This document shows, one piece after another, positions 139 to 5,994 of a stretch of DNA of 35,780 nt. Below the pieces are notes generated by a model, which had not been told where the DNA came from, did no database searches, and saw nothing but the letters and a program-made list of their open reading frames with translations. Source of the stretch: Pseudomonadota bacterium (GTDB lineage Bacteria > Pseudomonadota > Alphaproteobacteria > GCA-2731375); contig JAQBYC010000042.1 of the NCBI GenBank assembly GCA_027623205.1, forward strand, positions 1-35,780, read 5' to 3'. Position 1 is the first letter of the stretch. Every line of letters begins with the position of its first letter. A program made the translations under genes and the position numbers.

Positions 139-2694
139 ATGCTCGCTATCGAACCGCAGAATTCCGCTGGCCGCTTCAGCGAAGCCTGGAACGGTGTCGT
201 TCGCCGTGAACAGATCGGCATTCTCATCCGGCAGGCGCCATTTCTAGCCGTCGCGAATATCGTTAACAGCACGGTCGTCGTCCTCGTCGTTGCCACGGAT
301 GCCTCCCTATGGCTGCGCGCCGGCTGGTGGCTGGTGGTTTTCCTGTCCGCCCTCTACCCCTTGAACAACTGGCGGCGAACTCGCCTGGCATCCGTACCAA
401 GGTCGGCGAGCAACCGGGGGATCCATCGCTCGATCATCATTGCCGGCGTTTCAGGTCTGATCTGGGCCTCCGCGGCGCCTCTGTTCGCGCCGCGGCTGAG
501 CGATCGCGATGAGCTACTGCTGATGATCATTCTTTCGGGTATGGCGGCGGGTGGCACTGTCAGCCTTTCTTCGGTGCCCAAGGCTTCGTTCGTCTATGTA
601 ACTTCGATCGCTGCCATTGTTCTGGCTCATATGTTCTCTCAAGGAACGGTTCTCCACGCGTCTCTTGGGGGCATGTTATTGTTGTTTTTTACAATAACGC
701 TATTCGCCTCGAACTCGGTCTACCTTTCTGCGGCGGAAGCGTTGCGGAAGCGCGCCGAGGATGTTGAGCAACGGGCCGAGATGCAGGAACGGCTGCACGA
801 GTTCGCAGCCATCAGTTCTGATTGGTTCTGGGAGAGCGATAAAGCTGGCGTCCTTCGCGAAATCGCCAATAATGAGGCAGTGGAAGGCGCGACAATGCTC
901 GACTTCCAAGGCAAACGTTTTCTGATCGACATCGCACCCGATACTGCGGACGACCTAAAAAATTGGGGCGAAATATTGCAAGGCCATAAGGCCATTCGGC
1001 ATAAACTGTGCACCATAACAGACACAGCTGGTGGCAAGCGTCGCATCGCGGTAAACGGCCGGCCGCGGTTCGATGGCCATGGACAATTCATGGGCTACAG
1101 AGGCACCTTCACGAATTTGACGGACGTTTTGGCCGCTCAGGATCGTGCCGAGCGCGCCGAGGTGCTGCTGCGCGACGCCATTGAAGCCATCCCGGATGCT
1201 CTGATCCTGTATGACGCTGACGACAATATCGCGCTGTTCAATAACCGCCATCGGGAAATGTTCCCCTCGATTTCTGAAATCCTGGCGCCGGGTGTTTCGT
1301 ACGAGACAATTCTGCGACAGCAAATGTTGAGCGGTCAGTTCAAGGATATTATTGGACATGAAGAAGAAGTGATCGCGGAGCGATTGCGCGCGCACAAGAA
1401 CCCTTCGAATGACGACCTGCACATATTTTCAGACGGACGGACGGTGCGCCTAAGCGAACGGAGTACCAGCCTGGACGGCATCGTTGCCGTGCGGACCGAC
1501 ATCACCGAATTGACGGCTGCCAGGCAGGAGGCCCAGCGGGCTGCAGATCGCTTCCTCGATTTCGCTAGTTCCTCCGCGGACTGGTTCTGGGAAATGGATA
1601 CCGAACTGCGCTTTACCTGGATATCGCCCAATATTGAGGATACCACCGGTCTGCCTCCGGAATGGTACTATGGTAAATCCAGAGAGGACATCGTTGGTCC
1701 CGACCGTGACTCGCAACAATGGGCGCGGCACCTACGTACCTTGCGGGCGCACGAGCCCTTCCGGGATTTTGTCTATCATCGCGTGGGCGATGGAAACGAG
1801 ACCAGTTGGGTCAGCACCAGTGGTCTGCCGGTATTTGACGATGAGGGTAACTTTGATGGGTACCGGGGATGCGGCCGGGACGTAACCCAGTTGCGGGAAG
1901 CCGAGTCGCGCCTGCAGCAAGCCGAACGGCTTAGGGCGATCGGCCAACTTACCGGCGGTATCGCGCACGACTTCAATAACCTGTTGACGGCGATCATCGG
2001 CAATATTGAGCTGCTGGAGGATTCCGTGGTCGGAGATCCGGTCGCCGAACGGTTCCTGGGCGTTGCTAAGGAGGCGGGACAACGCGGCGCCCTCCTTACG
2101 CAACAACTGCTCGCGTTTGGCAGAAGGCAGGACCTGCGCCCAACCAGGACGGATATCCGCGCGCTTATCGATCAGGCGGTTGCGCTGATCGGCCGGATCA
2201 TTGGCGAAGACATCACCATCGATACCCACATTTCCAGTGATTTGCTGCCGATCACGGTTGATGCGGCGCAATTGCAGAACGCTCTGATCAATCTAGCTAT
2301 AAATGCGCGCGACGCCATGCCGGACGGCGGACGGTTGACTATCGATAGCCGCTGGACCTATCTCACACCACGAAATCTTGATGATAAGCAAGACGTGGCG
2401 CGGGAGCATTATCTGGAGATATCGGTCACTGACACCGGTATCGGGATGACGCCGGAAGTCCTCCAACGGGCCATGGAGCCTTTTTTTACCACCAAAGGTG
2501 TTGGCCAGGGCTCGGGGCTTGGCTTGGCAATGGCGCATGGTTTCGTGGCGCAGTCCGGCGGCCATGTTTCCATCGATTCCGAGCCTGGATCAGGAACCAC
2601 GGTGAAGCTATATCTACCGGACATCTGTGCCGCCGACGATGCAATGGAGGCAGAGATGCTGAATCCCACTGCGCCGTTGGAGGACCATGTGTGA
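139..2694 (+). CDS. Membrane-bound multi-PAS sensor histidine kinase
   Basis: This is a sensor kinase of 851 residues. The N-terminal part (about residues 34-191) holds roughly six hydrophobic segments. Three PAS-like regions follow at about 222-332, 344-457 and 470-590; the first and third share an S-x-D-W-F-W-E start. The catalytic core has the phospho-acceptor H610 in GGIAHDFNN, the N-box around 714-730 (LINLAINARDAM), DTGIGM at 765-770 and GSGLGLA at 791-797. No receiver domain is fused to it. I chose the ATG at 139 because AGGAG at 124-128 sits 10 nt before it; an in-frame TTG at 106 is possible but has no ribosome binding site. A single-domain response regulator, the natural partner, lies 88 nt downstream but is frameshifted. 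The signal sensed is unknown. Confidence 0.9.
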   Translation: MLAIEPQNSAGRFSEAWNGVVRREQIGILIRQAPFLAVANIVNSTVVVLVVATDASLWLRAGWWLVVFLSALYPLNNWRRTRLASVPRSASNRGIHRSIIIAGVSGLIWASAAPLFAPRLSDRDELLLMIILSGMAAGGTVSLSSVPKASFVYVTSIAAIVLAHMFSQGTVLHASLGGMLLLFFTITLFASNSVYLSAAEALRKRAEDVEQRAEMQERLHEFAAISSDWFWESDKAGVLREIANNEAVEGATMLDFQGKRFLIDIAPDTADDLKNWGEILQGHKAIRHKLCTITDTAGGKRRIAVNGRPRFDGHGQFMGYRGTFTNLTDVLAAQDRAERAEVLLRDAIEAIPDALILYDADDNIALFNNRHREMFPSISEILAPGVSYETILRQQMLSGQFKDIIGHEEEVIAERLRAHKNPSNDDLHIFSDGRTVRLSERSTSLDGIVAVRTDITELTAARQEAQRAADRFLDFASSSADWFWEMDTELRFTWISPNIEDTTGLPPEWYYGKSREDIVGPDRDSQQWARHLRTLRAHEPFRDFVYHRVGDGNETSWVSTSGLPVFDDEGNFDGYRGCGRDVTQLREAESRLQQAERLRAIGQLTGGIAHDFNNLLTAIIGNIELLEDSVVGDPVAERFLGVAKEAGQRGALLTQQLLAFGRRQDLRPTRTDIRALIDQAVALIGRIIGEDITIDTHISSDLLPITVDAAQLQNALINLAINARDAMPDGGRLTIDSRWTYLTPRNLDDKQDVAREHYLEISVTDTGIGMTPEVLQRAMEPFFTTKGVGQGSGLGLAMAHGFVAQSGGHVSIDSEPGSGTTVKLYLPDICAADDAMEAEMLNPTAPLEDHV

Positions 2695-2782: not shown

Positions 2783-3189
2783 ATGAATAAGGTGAATCCT
2801 GCCAGAATACTGCTTGTTGACGATGACCGGCTGTTGACGATGACCGGCTTGTTAGCGAAACCCTATCGGCGATATTACAGCAGGCCGGCTATGCGATCAC
2901 GACGGCGGCCAACGGCGAGGCGGGATTAAGGGAGTTGCGGTCGCAGGAATTCGACCTGGTCATTACGGACATCATGATGCCTCACAAGGACGGGATTGAG
3001 ACGATTTTGGACATTCGCCGAGACAACCCGGCGCAAAAAATTATTGCCATTTCGGGCGGATCCCTGGAAGTCGAACTCGACTACCTCGAATTTGCCGAAA
3101 AATTAGGGGCCGACGGGGTGTTGCAGAAGCCAATCAACCGCGAGCGGCTCTTGACGATGGTGGAGCCGTTGCTGGATCGGTCAACGTAA
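2783..3189 (+). pseudogene. Frameshifted single-domain response regulator (CheY-like)
   Basis: Translation from the ATG at 2783 (preceded by GGAAG) begins like a receiver domain, with ILLVDDDRL, then loses frame and stops at 2927-2929. A second frame resumes the domain to 3189: QQAGYAITTAANGEAGL, the phosphorylation motif LVITDIMMPHKDG, ISGGS, and the lysine of LQKPI. The break coincides with an imperfect tandem duplication: an 18-nt unit at 2813-2830 is followed by a 17-nt copy at 2831-2847 that lacks one T. Removing the extra 17 nt restores an intact domain of about 130 residues. The gene follows the histidine kinase and was probably its output partner. It is either a true pseudogene or an assembly or sequencing error; the sequence alone cannot decide. 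Confidence 0.8.
2813..2853 (+). repeat. Imperfect tandem duplication that breaks the response regulator
   Basis: The unit CTTGTTGACGATGACCGG (2813-2830) is repeated as CTGTTGACGATGACCGG (2831-2847), and a third partial CTTGTT follows at 2848-2853. An exact 18-nt duplication would have stayed in frame. The missing T in the second copy makes the insertion 17 nt and shifts the frame. Confidence 0.85.
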
Positions 3190-3456: not shown

Positions 3457-4170
3457 ATGGAGTTGCTGTTGGCCTTCGTCGCCGGGTTGTTGACCTTGCT
3501 TAACCCATGCGTTCTGCCGGTGCTGCCGATTGTTCTGGCCGCCTCGCTGCAGGCCGACCGCCGGGGGCCGTTGGCGTTGGCCTGCGGGCTCAGCCTGTCA
3601 TTCGTGCTGCTGGGCCTGTTTGTCATTGTTCTCGGCGCTTCAGTGGGTATTGATCAACAAATGATGACAACCGCTGGCGCCGTGCTGATGATCGGCTTCG
3701 GCCTGGTCATGCTGGTGCCGCAACTGAATGAAAGGTTCGCCCTCGTTACAGCCGGTTTCGCCGGCAACGTGGACGGCCGCATGCATGACGTCGACAGTGC
3801 AGGCCTGGGCGGCCAATTTCTTGGCGGGGCCATGCTGGGGGCTGTCTGGTCACCCTGCATCGGGCCGACCCTGGGAGGCGCCATATCATTGGCCTCTCGG
3901 GGTCAGGATATATTCTGGGCCGGTGCCGTCATGGCGGCGTTTGCCCTGGGTATATCCAGTATTATGCTGGCTTTGGCCTATGGCGCCCGAGAGGTCATCG
4001 TGAAACGCCAGCGGGCCCTGCGGCGTCTGACGGGCAAGGCCAAGCCGATCATGGGTATCACGTTTTTATGTGTGGGCTTGGGGATCATATTTGGGCTAGA
4101 CCGTTGGCTGGAAGGTTGGCTGCTGGACCTGCTGCCCGAGTGGCTGCAGGATTTCACCGTCTCCATCTGA
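3457..4170 (+). CDS. ccdA: CcdA/DsbD-type transmembrane thiol-disulfide transporter
   Basis: This 237-residue protein is almost entirely hydrophobic, with about six membrane segments (near 3-28, 38-62, 68-88, 120-145, 153-178 and 196-216). Two cysteines sit in the signature positions of the CcdA/DsbD-beta family: C18 in LLNPCVLPVLP and C134 in WSPCIGPTLGG. Family members pass electrons from cytoplasmic thioredoxin across the inner membrane to periplasmic thioredoxin-fold proteins. GGGGAG precedes the ATG by about 8 nt. The next gene, 34 nt downstream on the same strand, encodes an exported thioredoxin-fold protein, so the two very probably form one electron pathway. DsbD-beta without its flanking domains and CcdA cannot be told apart confidently from sequence alone. 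Confidence 0.88.
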   Translation: MELLLAFVAGLLTLLNPCVLPVLPIVLAASLQADRRGPLALACGLSLSFVLLGLFVIVLGASVGIDQQMMTTAGAVLMIGFGLVMLVPQLNERFALVTAGFAGNVDGRMHDVDSAGLGGQFLGGAMLGAVWSPCIGPTLGGAISLASRGQDIFWAGAVMAAFALGISSIMLALAYGAREVIVKRQRALRRLTGKAKPIMGITFLCVGLGIIFGLDRWLEGWLLDLLPEWLQDFTVSI

Positions 4171-4204
4171 TAGCGTTGATTTCAAATTGCCGAGAGGTCG
4201 TATG

Positions 4205-4609
4205 ATGTTACGTCGAAATTTGCTGCAGTTTGCTTTTGTCCTCGCGTTGCTAGCGCCGTTGGGGGTGCAGGCAAGCGAGCGCGCGGTACCCTATTCGCCC
4301 CAGGCGGTGAAGGACGCCTTGGCGCAGGGCCGCGCCGTTTTGCTGGATTTCCACGCAGAGTGGTGAGGTACCTGCCGCCGCCAGGTCCGTGAGATCAAGG
4401 CATTACGGGACGCCAACAGTGTCTATGCGGACAAGATTACTTTCATCTCTGTGGACTGGGACAAATATCATCGCGCGCCGGTCAGCGTGGAATTCAAGGT
4501 TCGCCGGCAGGCCACTTTGATATTGCTGAAGGGCGAGGGCGAAGTTGGTCGCTTGGTTGCCGAAACCAGCCAGGCGTTGATCAAGGGCTTACTCGATAAG
4601 GTGCTTTAA
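4205..4609 (+). CDS. Exported thioredoxin-fold protein, probable selenoprotein (UGA at 4364-4366)
   Basis: Reading one frame from the ATG at 4205 (GAGAGG at 4192-4197, 7 nt before; an adjacent in-frame ATG is at 4202) gives 134 residues if the UGA at 4364-4366 is decoded. Residues 1-23 are a signal peptide with basic LRRN, a hydrophobic core and a likely cleavage after VQA. A thioredoxin fold follows: AVLLDFHAEW-U54-G-T-C57, then a helix, FISVDWD and a C-terminal helix up to the TAA at 4607. The UGA replaces exactly the first cysteine of the CXXC motif and 80 sense codons remain in frame after it, which fits selenocysteine insertion. A SECIS-like hairpin lies at 4380-4401. Residue A103 (RQATLILL) stands where thioredoxins have their cis-proline. 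The ccdA-type gene just upstream probably supplies electrons. The alternative is a Cys-to-UGA nonsense mutation in a pseudogene. No selenocysteine synthesis genes are present in this window. Confidence 0.75.
4380..4401 (+). promoter_or_regulatory. Candidate bacterial SECIS hairpin
   Basis: Downstream of the UGA, GCC (4380-4382) pairs with GGC (4399-4401). After a small internal loop, GGUC (4384-4387) pairs with GAUC (4393-4396, one G-U pair) around the loop CGUGA (4388-4392). The loop starts 21 nt after the UGA and has G at its second position. Both agree with the described bacterial SECIS consensus (a G in the first two loop bases, UGA-to-loop spacing of roughly 16-37 nt). A GC-rich competing hairpin, GGUACCUG with CAGGUCC (4367-4388), starts right after the UGA and is too close to match the consensus. 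Confidence 0.5.
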
Positions 4610-4825: not shown

Positions 4826-5683
4826 CTATTCCGCTGCCGCGGCTACATCTGCTTTTCCAAGGATGAAATCATAATCCCGGTCATGCGCCAAGGCAGGGAT
4901 GTGTCCCCGCGCCTTGGCTACGGCAGCCAAATCGATCTCGGCCAAACTGACGCCTTCTTCGGTGCCGCCATCCGACAGCACCTCGCCCCAGGGCGCCACG
5001 ATTAGCGAATGACCATAACTGAGACGACCGGCAACATGTTCGCCGCACTGCGCCGCCGCGATGACAAAACAGCCGGTTTCAATGGCTCGGGCCCGCATCA
5101 GCACATGCCAATGTGCCTCTCCGGTGACCTGCATGAAGGCTGATGGTATCACCAGAACATCTGCGCCTGCCTTGGCCAAATCACGGTAAAGGTGAGGAAA
5201 GCGTAAATCGTAACAGATACTCAGGCCCAGTTGGCACCATGGGAGGGACGTCAAAACCGCTTGCCCGCCGGGTCTGTAGTTTTTTGATTCCCGCAGACTT
5301 TTGCCGTTGGGCAGGTCCACATCGAACATGTGGATCTTGTCATAGCGGGCTGCGACGGCACCGGTAGGATCAATCAGAAACTGCCGGTTCGCCAGCCGTT
5401 CCTCATCCTTCAACAGCACCGAGAGCGACCCCGCCAACAGCCATGCGCCTGTCTCCACCGCCCATCCGCGGAACGCGTCCAGGGCCGGGTGGGAGTCCTC
5501 ATAAAACGCCTTCGCGCGAATATTTTCACGCCCGACTTCGATCATCGCGGCGCATTCGGGCGTGGTGATGAGGTCAGCGCCCGCATCGCGCGCTTCGCGG
5601 ATCATGCGGCCTAGATTGGCGATATTGCCGTCCAGATCGTTGCTGGCATTGATTTGCACGCAGGCGGCGGTAAATCCGGTCAT
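4826..5683 (-). CDS. Carbon-nitrogen hydrolase, Nit/omega-amidase type
   Basis: The protein has 285 residues from the ATG at 5683, which has GGGGAA 7 nt before it; a TTG two codons upstream would overlap that site. The nitrilase-superfamily triad is visible: E43 in TTPECAAM, K116 in YDKIHMFDVD and C157 in LSICYDLRFP. Length and motifs match the Nit1/Nit2 branch, whose bacterial members hydrolyse deaminated glutathione or omega-amides such as alpha-ketoglutaramate, not true nitriles. It is the last gene of a minus-strand block after comF and grxC, 41 nt behind grxC, an arrangement common in alphaproteobacteria. The glutathione-linked neighbour favours deaminated-glutathione amidase, but the substrate is inferred. 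Confidence 0.88.
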   Translation of the reverse strand: MTGFTAACVQINASNDLDGNIANLGRMIREARDAGADLITTPECAAMIEVGRENIRAKAFYEDSHPALDAFRGWAVETGAWLLAGSLSVLLKDEERLANRQFLIDPTGAVAARYDKIHMFDVDLPNGKSLRESKNYRPGGQAVLTSLPWCQLGLSICYDLRFPHLYRDLAKAGADVLVIPSAFMQVTGEAHWHVLMRARAIETGCFVIAAAQCGEHVAGRLSYGHSLIVAPWGEVLSDGGTEEGVSLAEIDLAAVAKARGHIPALAHDRDYDFILGKADVAAAAE

Positions 5684-5724
5684 GGCCAATTTCCCCAGTT
5701 CAAGTCGGTGTTCAGGCAGCTATT

Positions 5725-5994
5725 CTAGTCTACGGCATTCTCGGACAGCAACGGGTCCAATTGATTTTGCCGCTCCAAGGCAAAAAGTTCGTCACAGCCC
5801 CCGACATGGCGGTCGCCGATAAAGATTTGCGGCACGGTGTGGCCGCCGTTGGCGCGCTGGCGCATCTCGGCTCGGGCGCCCGGCACCCGGTCGACGTCAA
5901 TCTCGTCATAGGCGACGCCCTTGCTTTCCAGCAGTTTCTTGGCATGAAAGCAAAACGGGCAAAACCCTGTAGTGTAAATGGTGACGTCAGGCAT
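5725..5994 (-). CDS. grxC: Glutaredoxin 3 family protein
   Basis: This 89-residue protein is a complete class I glutaredoxin. It has the dithiol site C12-P-F-C15 (the commonest form is CPYC), TVPQIFI with the cis-proline, and GGCDEL for glutathione binding. It should be cytoplasmic and reduce protein disulfides and glutathione mixed disulfides. Its ATG at 5994 lies 30 nt after the comF stop, and the nitrilase-type gene follows 41 nt later, so all three are probably co-transcribed. Confidence 0.95.
   Translation of the reverse strand: MPDVTIYTTGFCPFCFHAKKLLESKGVAYDEIDVDRVPGARAEMRQRANGGHTVPQIFIGDRHVGGCDELFALERQNQLDPLLSENAVD

What the first reader, a model, noticed from the sequence alone, without database searches (positions are those of the whole stretch)
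4205..4609. Exported thioredoxin with UGA in place of the first redox cysteine: probable selenoprotein
In one frame a signal peptide, the first half of a thioredoxin fold, a UGA, and the second half with 80 further codons are all intact. The UGA falls exactly on the first Cys of CXXC (W-U-G-T-C). A random nonsense mutation could land there, but the site where Sec is chemically useful is the one affected and nothing else is decayed. Thioredoxin-like selenoproteins are known; a secreted one paired with a ccdA-type gene in this lineage would be worth describing. Ordinary annotation would cut it into two fragments or miss it.
Basis: partly seen in the sequence, partly recalled or inferred. Interest (0 to 1): 0.93.

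Follow-up and report, generated by a model that had tools for sequence, protein, structure and literature searches.

The report
Exported thioredoxin carrying selenocysteine
This gene, which ordinary annotation would read as broken, most likely makes a small exported redox protein with selenium at its active site, because related bacteria that can insert selenium keep the same in-frame stop codon at exactly that site.

Summary
Window 4205-4609 (+) encodes a signal peptide, half a thioredoxin, UGA at codon 54 (4364-4366) in place of the first Cys of CXXC, then 80 intact codons. It is not a stray nonsense mutation: 11 genomes (this one included; 8 in its family, 3 in a second family) carry an orthologue with UGA at the same column. 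The genome has tRNA-Sec, selA, selB and selD, and its selD itself has an in-frame UGA. The three nearest homologues with Cys there come from genomes without a selB or tRNA-Sec hit. Codons just after the UGA are frozen at synonymous sites and can form a conserved SECIS-like hairpin. A ccdA-type gene lies directly upstream in 10 of 11 UGA loci. Best reading: an exported seleno-thioredoxin re-reduced through CcdA. Sec insertion, export and partner are inferred, not shown. Thioredoxin-fold UxxC selenoproteins are known; this exported, CcdA-paired subfamily appears undescribed in what I could search.

The parts
4205..4609 (+). seleno-thioredoxin gene, 134 residues with Sec at 54; stop TAA 4607-4609; alternative in-frame ATG at 4202
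   Evidence: PF00085 42.8 bits with TGA=C; 10 orthologues with aligned TGA
4205..4273 (+). predicted signal peptide (Arg-Arg, hydrophobic stretch, A-x-A-like end V-Q-A)
   Evidence: sequence itself; similar N-termini in orthologues; low pLDDT 51-53 over residues 1-20; no signal-peptide program was run
4364..4366 (+). UGA, predicted selenocysteine 54 of the U-G-T-C motif
   Evidence: 11 of 11 orthologues have TGA here; Cys in the 12 other rows of the alignment
4373..4375 (+). Cys57, resolving cysteine of UXXC
   Evidence: invariant in 23 of 23 aligned homologues
4380..4401 (+). SECIS-like hairpin: arms 4380-4387 and 4393-4401, apical loop CGUGA 4388-4392, 21 nt after the UGA
   Evidence: synonymous-site constraint over the 15 codons after UGA; model hit 4361-4426 (built from these sequences)
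3457..4170 (+). ccdA-type membrane protein gene (DsbD_TM), likely co-transcribed; ends TGA, 34 bases before the thioredoxin ATG
   Evidence: PF02683 51 bits, PF13386 39.4 bits, both over cut-off; directly upstream in 10 of 11 UGA loci
4192..4197 (+). purine-rich GAGAGG, possible ribosome-binding site
   Evidence: sequence itself; not tested

Best explanation
The gene encodes an exported thioredoxin-fold selenoprotein. SelB and tRNA-Sec read the UGA at codon 54 as selenocysteine, guided by a hairpin just downstream; the product crosses the membrane by its signal peptide and works outside the cytoplasm as a thiol/selenol-disulfide reductase through Sec54 and Cys57. The neighbouring CcdA-type protein most likely carries electrons from cytoplasmic thioredoxin across the membrane and re-reduces it, so that the pair works like a split DsbD (beta and gamma parts). 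Shown by computation: the aligned UGA, the Sec machinery, the Cys/Sec pairing, constraint on both sides, the ccdA linkage. Inferred: actual Sec insertion, export, the electron path, the substrate (unknown).
For: Aligned in-frame TGA in 11 genomes from two families. Own genome: tRNA-Sec, selB, selA next to selB, selD with one TGA, read as G-G-U-G-S-K. selB found in 10 of 10 UGA genomes tested (G396 not tested for selB), tRNA-Sec in 9 of 11; neither in the 3 genomes with the nearest Cys forms. Identical-codon share among synonymous comparisons is 0.74 (446/600) in the 15 codons after UGA, against 0.42 (405/958) before and 0.54 (1135/2086) beyond; 15 random codons reach this in 0.175% of 20000 draws, and 0 of 227 windows of the neighbouring ccdA do. 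A hairpin of the published bacterial SECIS type lies at spacing 21 with loop CGUGN in 10 of 11. ccdA directly upstream in 10 of 11 and upstream of the 3 nearest Cys forms. Confident thioredoxin model, pLDDT 88.6, best solved match 5zf2, TM 0.69/0.89.
Against: No experiment. The hairpin is weak in energy: 6 of 11 reach the model's -7.5 kcal/mol, and 99 of 400 arbitrary codon sites in the window's ORFs also pass; folds of the window's own stretch alone are no better than shuffles; covariation rests on one sequence, and 51 of 500 shuffles do as well. G298 and G206 each break one outer pair. tRNA-Sec was not found in G002 and G011 (only 150 of 914 and 150 of 912 candidates were scored). Four genomes of the same genus have selB but no orthologue at E<=1e-12, so the gene is dispensable. 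One UGA locus (G396) has no ccdA within 1.5 kb. Two Cys-form genomes, G108 and G191, do have selB.
Confidence: 0.92

Rival explanations
1. A pseudogene: a nonsense mutation in an ordinary Cys thioredoxin.
For: TGA interrupts the frame; the gene is missing from 4 of 11 genomes of the genus, and the response regulator gene upstream is frameshifted.
Against: Same TGA in 11 genomes at 51-75% protein identity to the window's; no other stop or frameshift in any of the 11; pN/pS similar before and after the TGA.
Confidence: 0.02
2. Sequencing or assembly error (TGC/TGT miscalled as TGA).
For: The window comes from a draft of 228 contigs.
Against: The same call would be needed in 11 assemblies at one codon.
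Confidence: 0.01
3. The organism reads UGA as a normal amino acid (code change), so nothing special happens here.
For: In-frame TGA tolerated here and in selD.
Against: The ccdA gene next door ends in TGA, and 7 of the 22 window ORFs whose stops were listed end in TGA; selB, 668 aa, is open without TGA.
Confidence: 0.01
4. It is a selenoprotein, but the ccdA-type neighbour is not its reductase: the protein may be reduced or oxidised by something else, or hand electrons to another partner.
For: G396 keeps the UGA gene without ccdA nearby; the usual cis-proline place holds Ala/Ser, so its redox partners may differ from those of thioredoxin.
Against: ccdA adjacent in 10 of 11 UGA loci and in 13 of 13 Cys loci examined (one only as a 25-residue match at a contig end), upstream or downstream.
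Confidence: 0.25

Closest known systems
Sec-containing thioredoxin (Trx, PF00085, UxxC) and GOS 'Trx-like 1' (COG0526, UxxC, 321 sequences)
   Same: Thioredoxin fold, Sec in place of the first Cys of CXXC (PMC13188914 and PMC2398784, passages).
   Different: Here an exported form, with Ala/Ser at the cis-proline place, beside ccdA. I could not compare sequences with those members, so some GOS reads may belong to this subfamily.
TsoB, rhodanese/DsbD fusion-like selenoprotein (NF045694)
   Same: Both genes match parts of it: the thioredoxin at its residues 459-548 (32 bits), the ccdA-type protein at 185-356 (14.3 bits); a DsbD-type architecture with Sec.
   Different: Both far below the cut-off of 805 bits; listed motif UxxxxU with 2 Sec in one fusion protein (PMC13188914, passage), here two genes and one UxxC.
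DsbD (CcdA-like beta domain plus thioredoxin-like gamma domain)
   Same: Membrane CcdA-type part and periplasmic thioredoxin part go together; best NCBIfam hit of the ccdA-type protein is DsbD, 29.5 bits.
   Different: Split in two genes, no alpha domain seen, Sec in the gamma-like part; below the DsbD cut-off of 330 bits.
5zf2/5zpv, a solved Edwardsiella thioredoxin-like protein (Trxlp)
   Same: Nearest solved relative by profile (E 2.7e-31 and 1.5e-30) and by fold; shares the Q-S-T-L stretch in place of the cis-proline.
   Different: Cys, not Sec; described as a virulence protein of a fish pathogen (PMC6636751, search listing and abstract start only), a role for which nothing here speaks.

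Membership tests
Bacterial selenoprotein | in-frame UGA aligned with Cys of homologues | tested here: met
   11 UGA rows against 12 Cys rows at one invariant column
Bacterial selenoprotein | UGA kept in other species | tested here: met
   11 genomes, 2 families
Bacterial selenoprotein | selA, selB, selC, selD in the genome | tested here: met
Bacterial selenoprotein | bSECIS: stem 4-16 bp, loop 3-9 nt with G in its first two places, spacing 16-37 nt, energy <= -7.5 kcal/mol (PMC13188914, passage) | tested here: inconclusive
   geometry met (stem, CGUGN loop, spacing 21) in 10 of 11; energy met by 6 of 11 including the window's (-7.7); background pass rate 99 of 400 (own implementation, not bSECISearch)
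Bacterial selenoprotein | Sec found in the protein | not testable with these tools
   needs mass spectrometry or 75Se
Thioredoxin superfamily (PF00085) | score over Pfam cut-off; thioredoxin fold | tested here: met
   42.8 against 23.5 bits; model and Foldseek
Canonical thioredoxin (TIGR01068) | score over the equivalog cut-off | tested here: not met
   46 against 96.8 bits
Canonical thioredoxin (TIGR01068) | cis-proline before the fourth strand (recalled) | tested here: not met
   Ala103 (Ala/Ser in the 23 rows) aligns with Pro of two solved thioredoxins, 6z7o and 6zmu
TsoB (NF045694) | score over cut-off, one fusion protein | tested here: not met
   32 and 14.3 bits against 805
CcdA/DsbD transmembrane family (neighbour gene) | PF02683 over cut-off | tested here: met
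   51 against 27.1 bits

The most novel reading that the evidence does not exclude
A two-gene trans-membrane relay, CcdA plus an exported seleno-thioredoxin lacking the cis-proline, is a distinct selenium-dependent periplasmic reductase of two alphaproteobacterial families, and it (with Sec-SelD) helps keep the Sec trait alive in a genome in which no formate dehydrogenase-type match carries an in-frame UGA.
Probability: 0.45. Interest if true: 0.62.

Novelty: new variant of a known kind. Interest (0 to 1): 0.52.

Why it matters
It turns a gene that pipelines would drop or split into a testable selenoprotein, places Sec at the exported end of a CcdA/DsbD-type electron relay, and adds a Sec use in Alphaproteobacteria other than formate dehydrogenase, which a 2006 survey called the only selenoprotein of Sec-decoding organisms there (PMC1794560, passages). 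In this genome 23 matches to the formate dehydrogenase alpha model contain no in-frame stop, so something else must keep the Sec trait.

Tried and rejected
Alignment A1 mixed strands (5 of 8 rows reversed) and was discarded; A2 and A4 replaced it. Folding the window's own stretch alone gave nothing beyond shuffles. Rfam at gathering score found nothing in the window. RNAalifold also predicts outer pairs 1-5/51-55 and a small 7-9/14-16 stem; I kept only the 20-41 hairpin and an optional 16-17/46-47 pair. The tree does not settle whether Sec arose once or was lost to Cys: the UGA/Cys split has support 46/59. One search compared the alignment with one of its own rows and says nothing. Code change, sequencing error and pseudogene were rejected (see rivals). 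Genomes other than those named were not searched for further selenoproteins.

Rows dropped: L143 from alignment A6 (wrong coordinates on my side); G396 is not in A3, A4 or model R1 because it was found later. Model R1 scores (79.5-91 bits for UGA loci; 14.8 and 13.1 for Cys loci L135 and L134; none for L136, L137 at E<=10) favour its own training rows.

Full report
Observation. The window is contig C98 of a 5.02-Mb genome draft, 96.94% complete. Its plus strand at 4205-4609 reads 53 codons, TGA, 80 codons and TAA. With TGA read as Cys the product matches Pfam Thioredoxin across the TGA (42.8 bits, cut-off 23.5). The upstream ORF 3457-4170 is a CcdA/DsbD-type membrane protein (PF02683, 51 bits, cut-off 27.1).

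Machinery. The genome has tRNA-Sec (68.2 bits, cut-off 47; ARAGORN tRNA-SeC with anticodon tca), selB (399.5 bits, cut-off 242.25), selA just beside it (582.4 bits, cut-off 267.9) and selD (390.8 bits, cut-off 125, one in-frame TGA). The selD TGA lies in ...AHGGG-U-GSK..., the place where SelD is known to carry Cys or Sec (the site is recalled). A second, Cys-type selD is fused to an oxidoreductase-like part. So this genome has a second UGA gene of a known selenoprotein family. In contrast, 23 matches to the formate dehydrogenase alpha model have no stop inside (one match is over the cut-off).

Conservation of the UGA. In 15 genomes of the family, 8 have an orthologue at E<=1e-12, all with one TGA. 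A sample of 385 genomes of the class gave 30 genomes with a match; 5 of these have TGA (three of the family, plus G206 and G298 of another family) and the others none in the rows listed. The second family has 3 of 7. In all 11 the TGA is in W-U-[GST]-[ST]-C. Identity of the other 10 to the window's protein is 51-75%. pN/pS is 0.35 before and 0.42 after the TGA (mean of 28 pairs, 8 sequences). The one named record among them is JAJFGG010000157.1, 'Alphaproteobacteria bacterium isolate OFTM58' (L049), which appears to be the same contig as G002's.

Cys/Sec pairs. The nearest homologues without TGA (G234, G036, G130; W-C-S-T-C) come from genomes in which no selB was found at E<=1e-60 and no tRNA-Sec at E<=1e-9. 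selB was found in 10 of 10 UGA genomes tested and tRNA-Sec in 9 of 11 (missing in G002 and G011, where only 150 of 914 and 150 of 912 candidates were scored). It is not a strict rule: all 15 family genomes have selB, yet 7 of them lack the gene at the cut-off used, and of 9 more distant Cys-form genomes tested 2 (G108, G191) have selB. The tree puts all UGA rows and the 3 nearest Cys rows in one clade (99/97) but does not resolve the order of gain and loss inside it.

The stretch after the UGA. Among pairs of sequences with the same amino acid, identical codons make up 0.74 (446/600) in the 15 codons after UGA, 0.42 (405/958) in the 30 before and 0.54 (1135/2086) beyond (11 sequences). Fifteen random codons of the gene reach that in 0.175% of 20000 draws, and none of 227 windows of ccdA does (maximum 0.63). 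This is what an RNA signal overlapping the frame would leave. The candidate is a hairpin at 4380-4401, GCC-A-G[A/G]UC-CGUGN-GAUC-..-GGC. It pairs in 97.8% of 90 cells in 10 sequences, against 20-39% when slid by 1-3 columns. In G006 the pair G-C has become C-G by a change on both sides. This is one event, and 51 of 500 shuffles do as well, so covariation alone is weak. Measured against the published model (loop 3-9 nt with early G, stem 4-16 bp, spacing 16-37, energy <= -7.5; PMC13188914, passage), my own scan finds the hairpin with loop CGUGN at spacing 21 in 10 of 11; G298's best is another register at spacing 22. Energy is met by 6 of 11, the window's included (-7.7), and 99 of 400 arbitrary codon sites pass too. 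I therefore rest the SECIS on conservation, not on energy.

Protein. The model is confident (pLDDT 88.6, pTM 0.78) and a thioredoxin (Foldseek best 5zf2, TM 0.69/0.89). The first about 23 residues look like a signal peptide and are the poorly predicted part; no signal-peptide program was available. W53, the Sec/Cys54 column, Cys57 and Gln60 are invariant in 23 rows. The place of the cis-proline holds Ala or Ser; in alignments with solved thioredoxins 6z7o and 6zmu it faces Pro, and the nearest solved relative also has Q-S-T-L there. It falls below the NCBIfam cut-off for thioredoxin (46 against 96.8) and for every other family listed, including the selenoprotein TsoB (32 against 805).

Neighbourhood and mechanism. 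The ccdA-type gene is directly upstream in 10 of 11 UGA loci (69-100% identity) and absent within 1.5 kb in G396. It is upstream of the 3 nearest Cys forms and downstream of the 10 further ones, with an 11th partial at a contig end. So the pair is older than the Sec. CcdA-type proteins and DsbD's membrane domain carry electrons from cytoplasmic thioredoxin to exported thioredoxin-like partners (established knowledge, not tested here). The most likely working is that relay, with Sec54 as the attacking residue. The final substrate is unknown. Because Sec has a low pKa, the site would stay reactive at low pH or with oxidised targets such as sulfenic acids (inference).

Known or new. UxxC thioredoxins are listed among proven and predicted selenoproteins (PMC13188914, passages; PMC9312934, passages; PMC2398784, passages). 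A survey of 2006 gave formate dehydrogenase as the only selenoprotein of Sec-decoding Alphaproteobacteria (PMC1794560, passages). Searches for selenoprotein with CcdA, with DsbD/periplasmic/thioredoxin-like, with SelB/Alphaproteobacteria/thioredoxin, with UxxC/signal peptide, and deep-Sep listed no paper whose title or abstract start described an exported, CcdA-paired seleno-thioredoxin. The library is open-access only, and one relevant paper on selenoprotein neighbourhoods was not held, so 'undescribed' means only that. I call it a new variant of a known kind.

Noticed in passing
window about 2783-3189 (+): A response regulator gene downstream of a histidine kinase (106-2694) is frameshifted by a 17-base direct duplication (gttgacgatgaccggct twice, about 2817-2850); Pfam sees only its later part. 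Real mutation or assembly slip is open.
   Followed up: partly
L181, match 1501-2430 (-) (genome C63:21997-22926): selD with an in-frame UGA at the known Sec site, so a second selenoprotein gene in this genome.
   Followed up: partly
L182:262-2538 (+): A second, Cys-type SelD fused behind an oxidoreductase-like domain, 758 aa.
   Followed up: no
genome G000: 23 matches to the formate dehydrogenase alpha model, none with an in-frame stop: the Sec trait does not seem to rest on formate dehydrogenase here.
   Followed up: partly
window 5725-5994 (-) and 4826-5689 (-): Glutaredoxin 3 (TIGR02181, 119.5 bits, cut-off 90) and a carbon-nitrogen hydrolase resembling deaminated glutathione amidase, below its cut-off (199.5 against 500) lie just downstream on the other strand.
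   Followed up: no
L184 (G396): The UGA thioredoxin stands without ccdA within 1.5 kb and carries W-U-T-T-C; a lone copy useful for testing what the partner is.
   Followed up: partly
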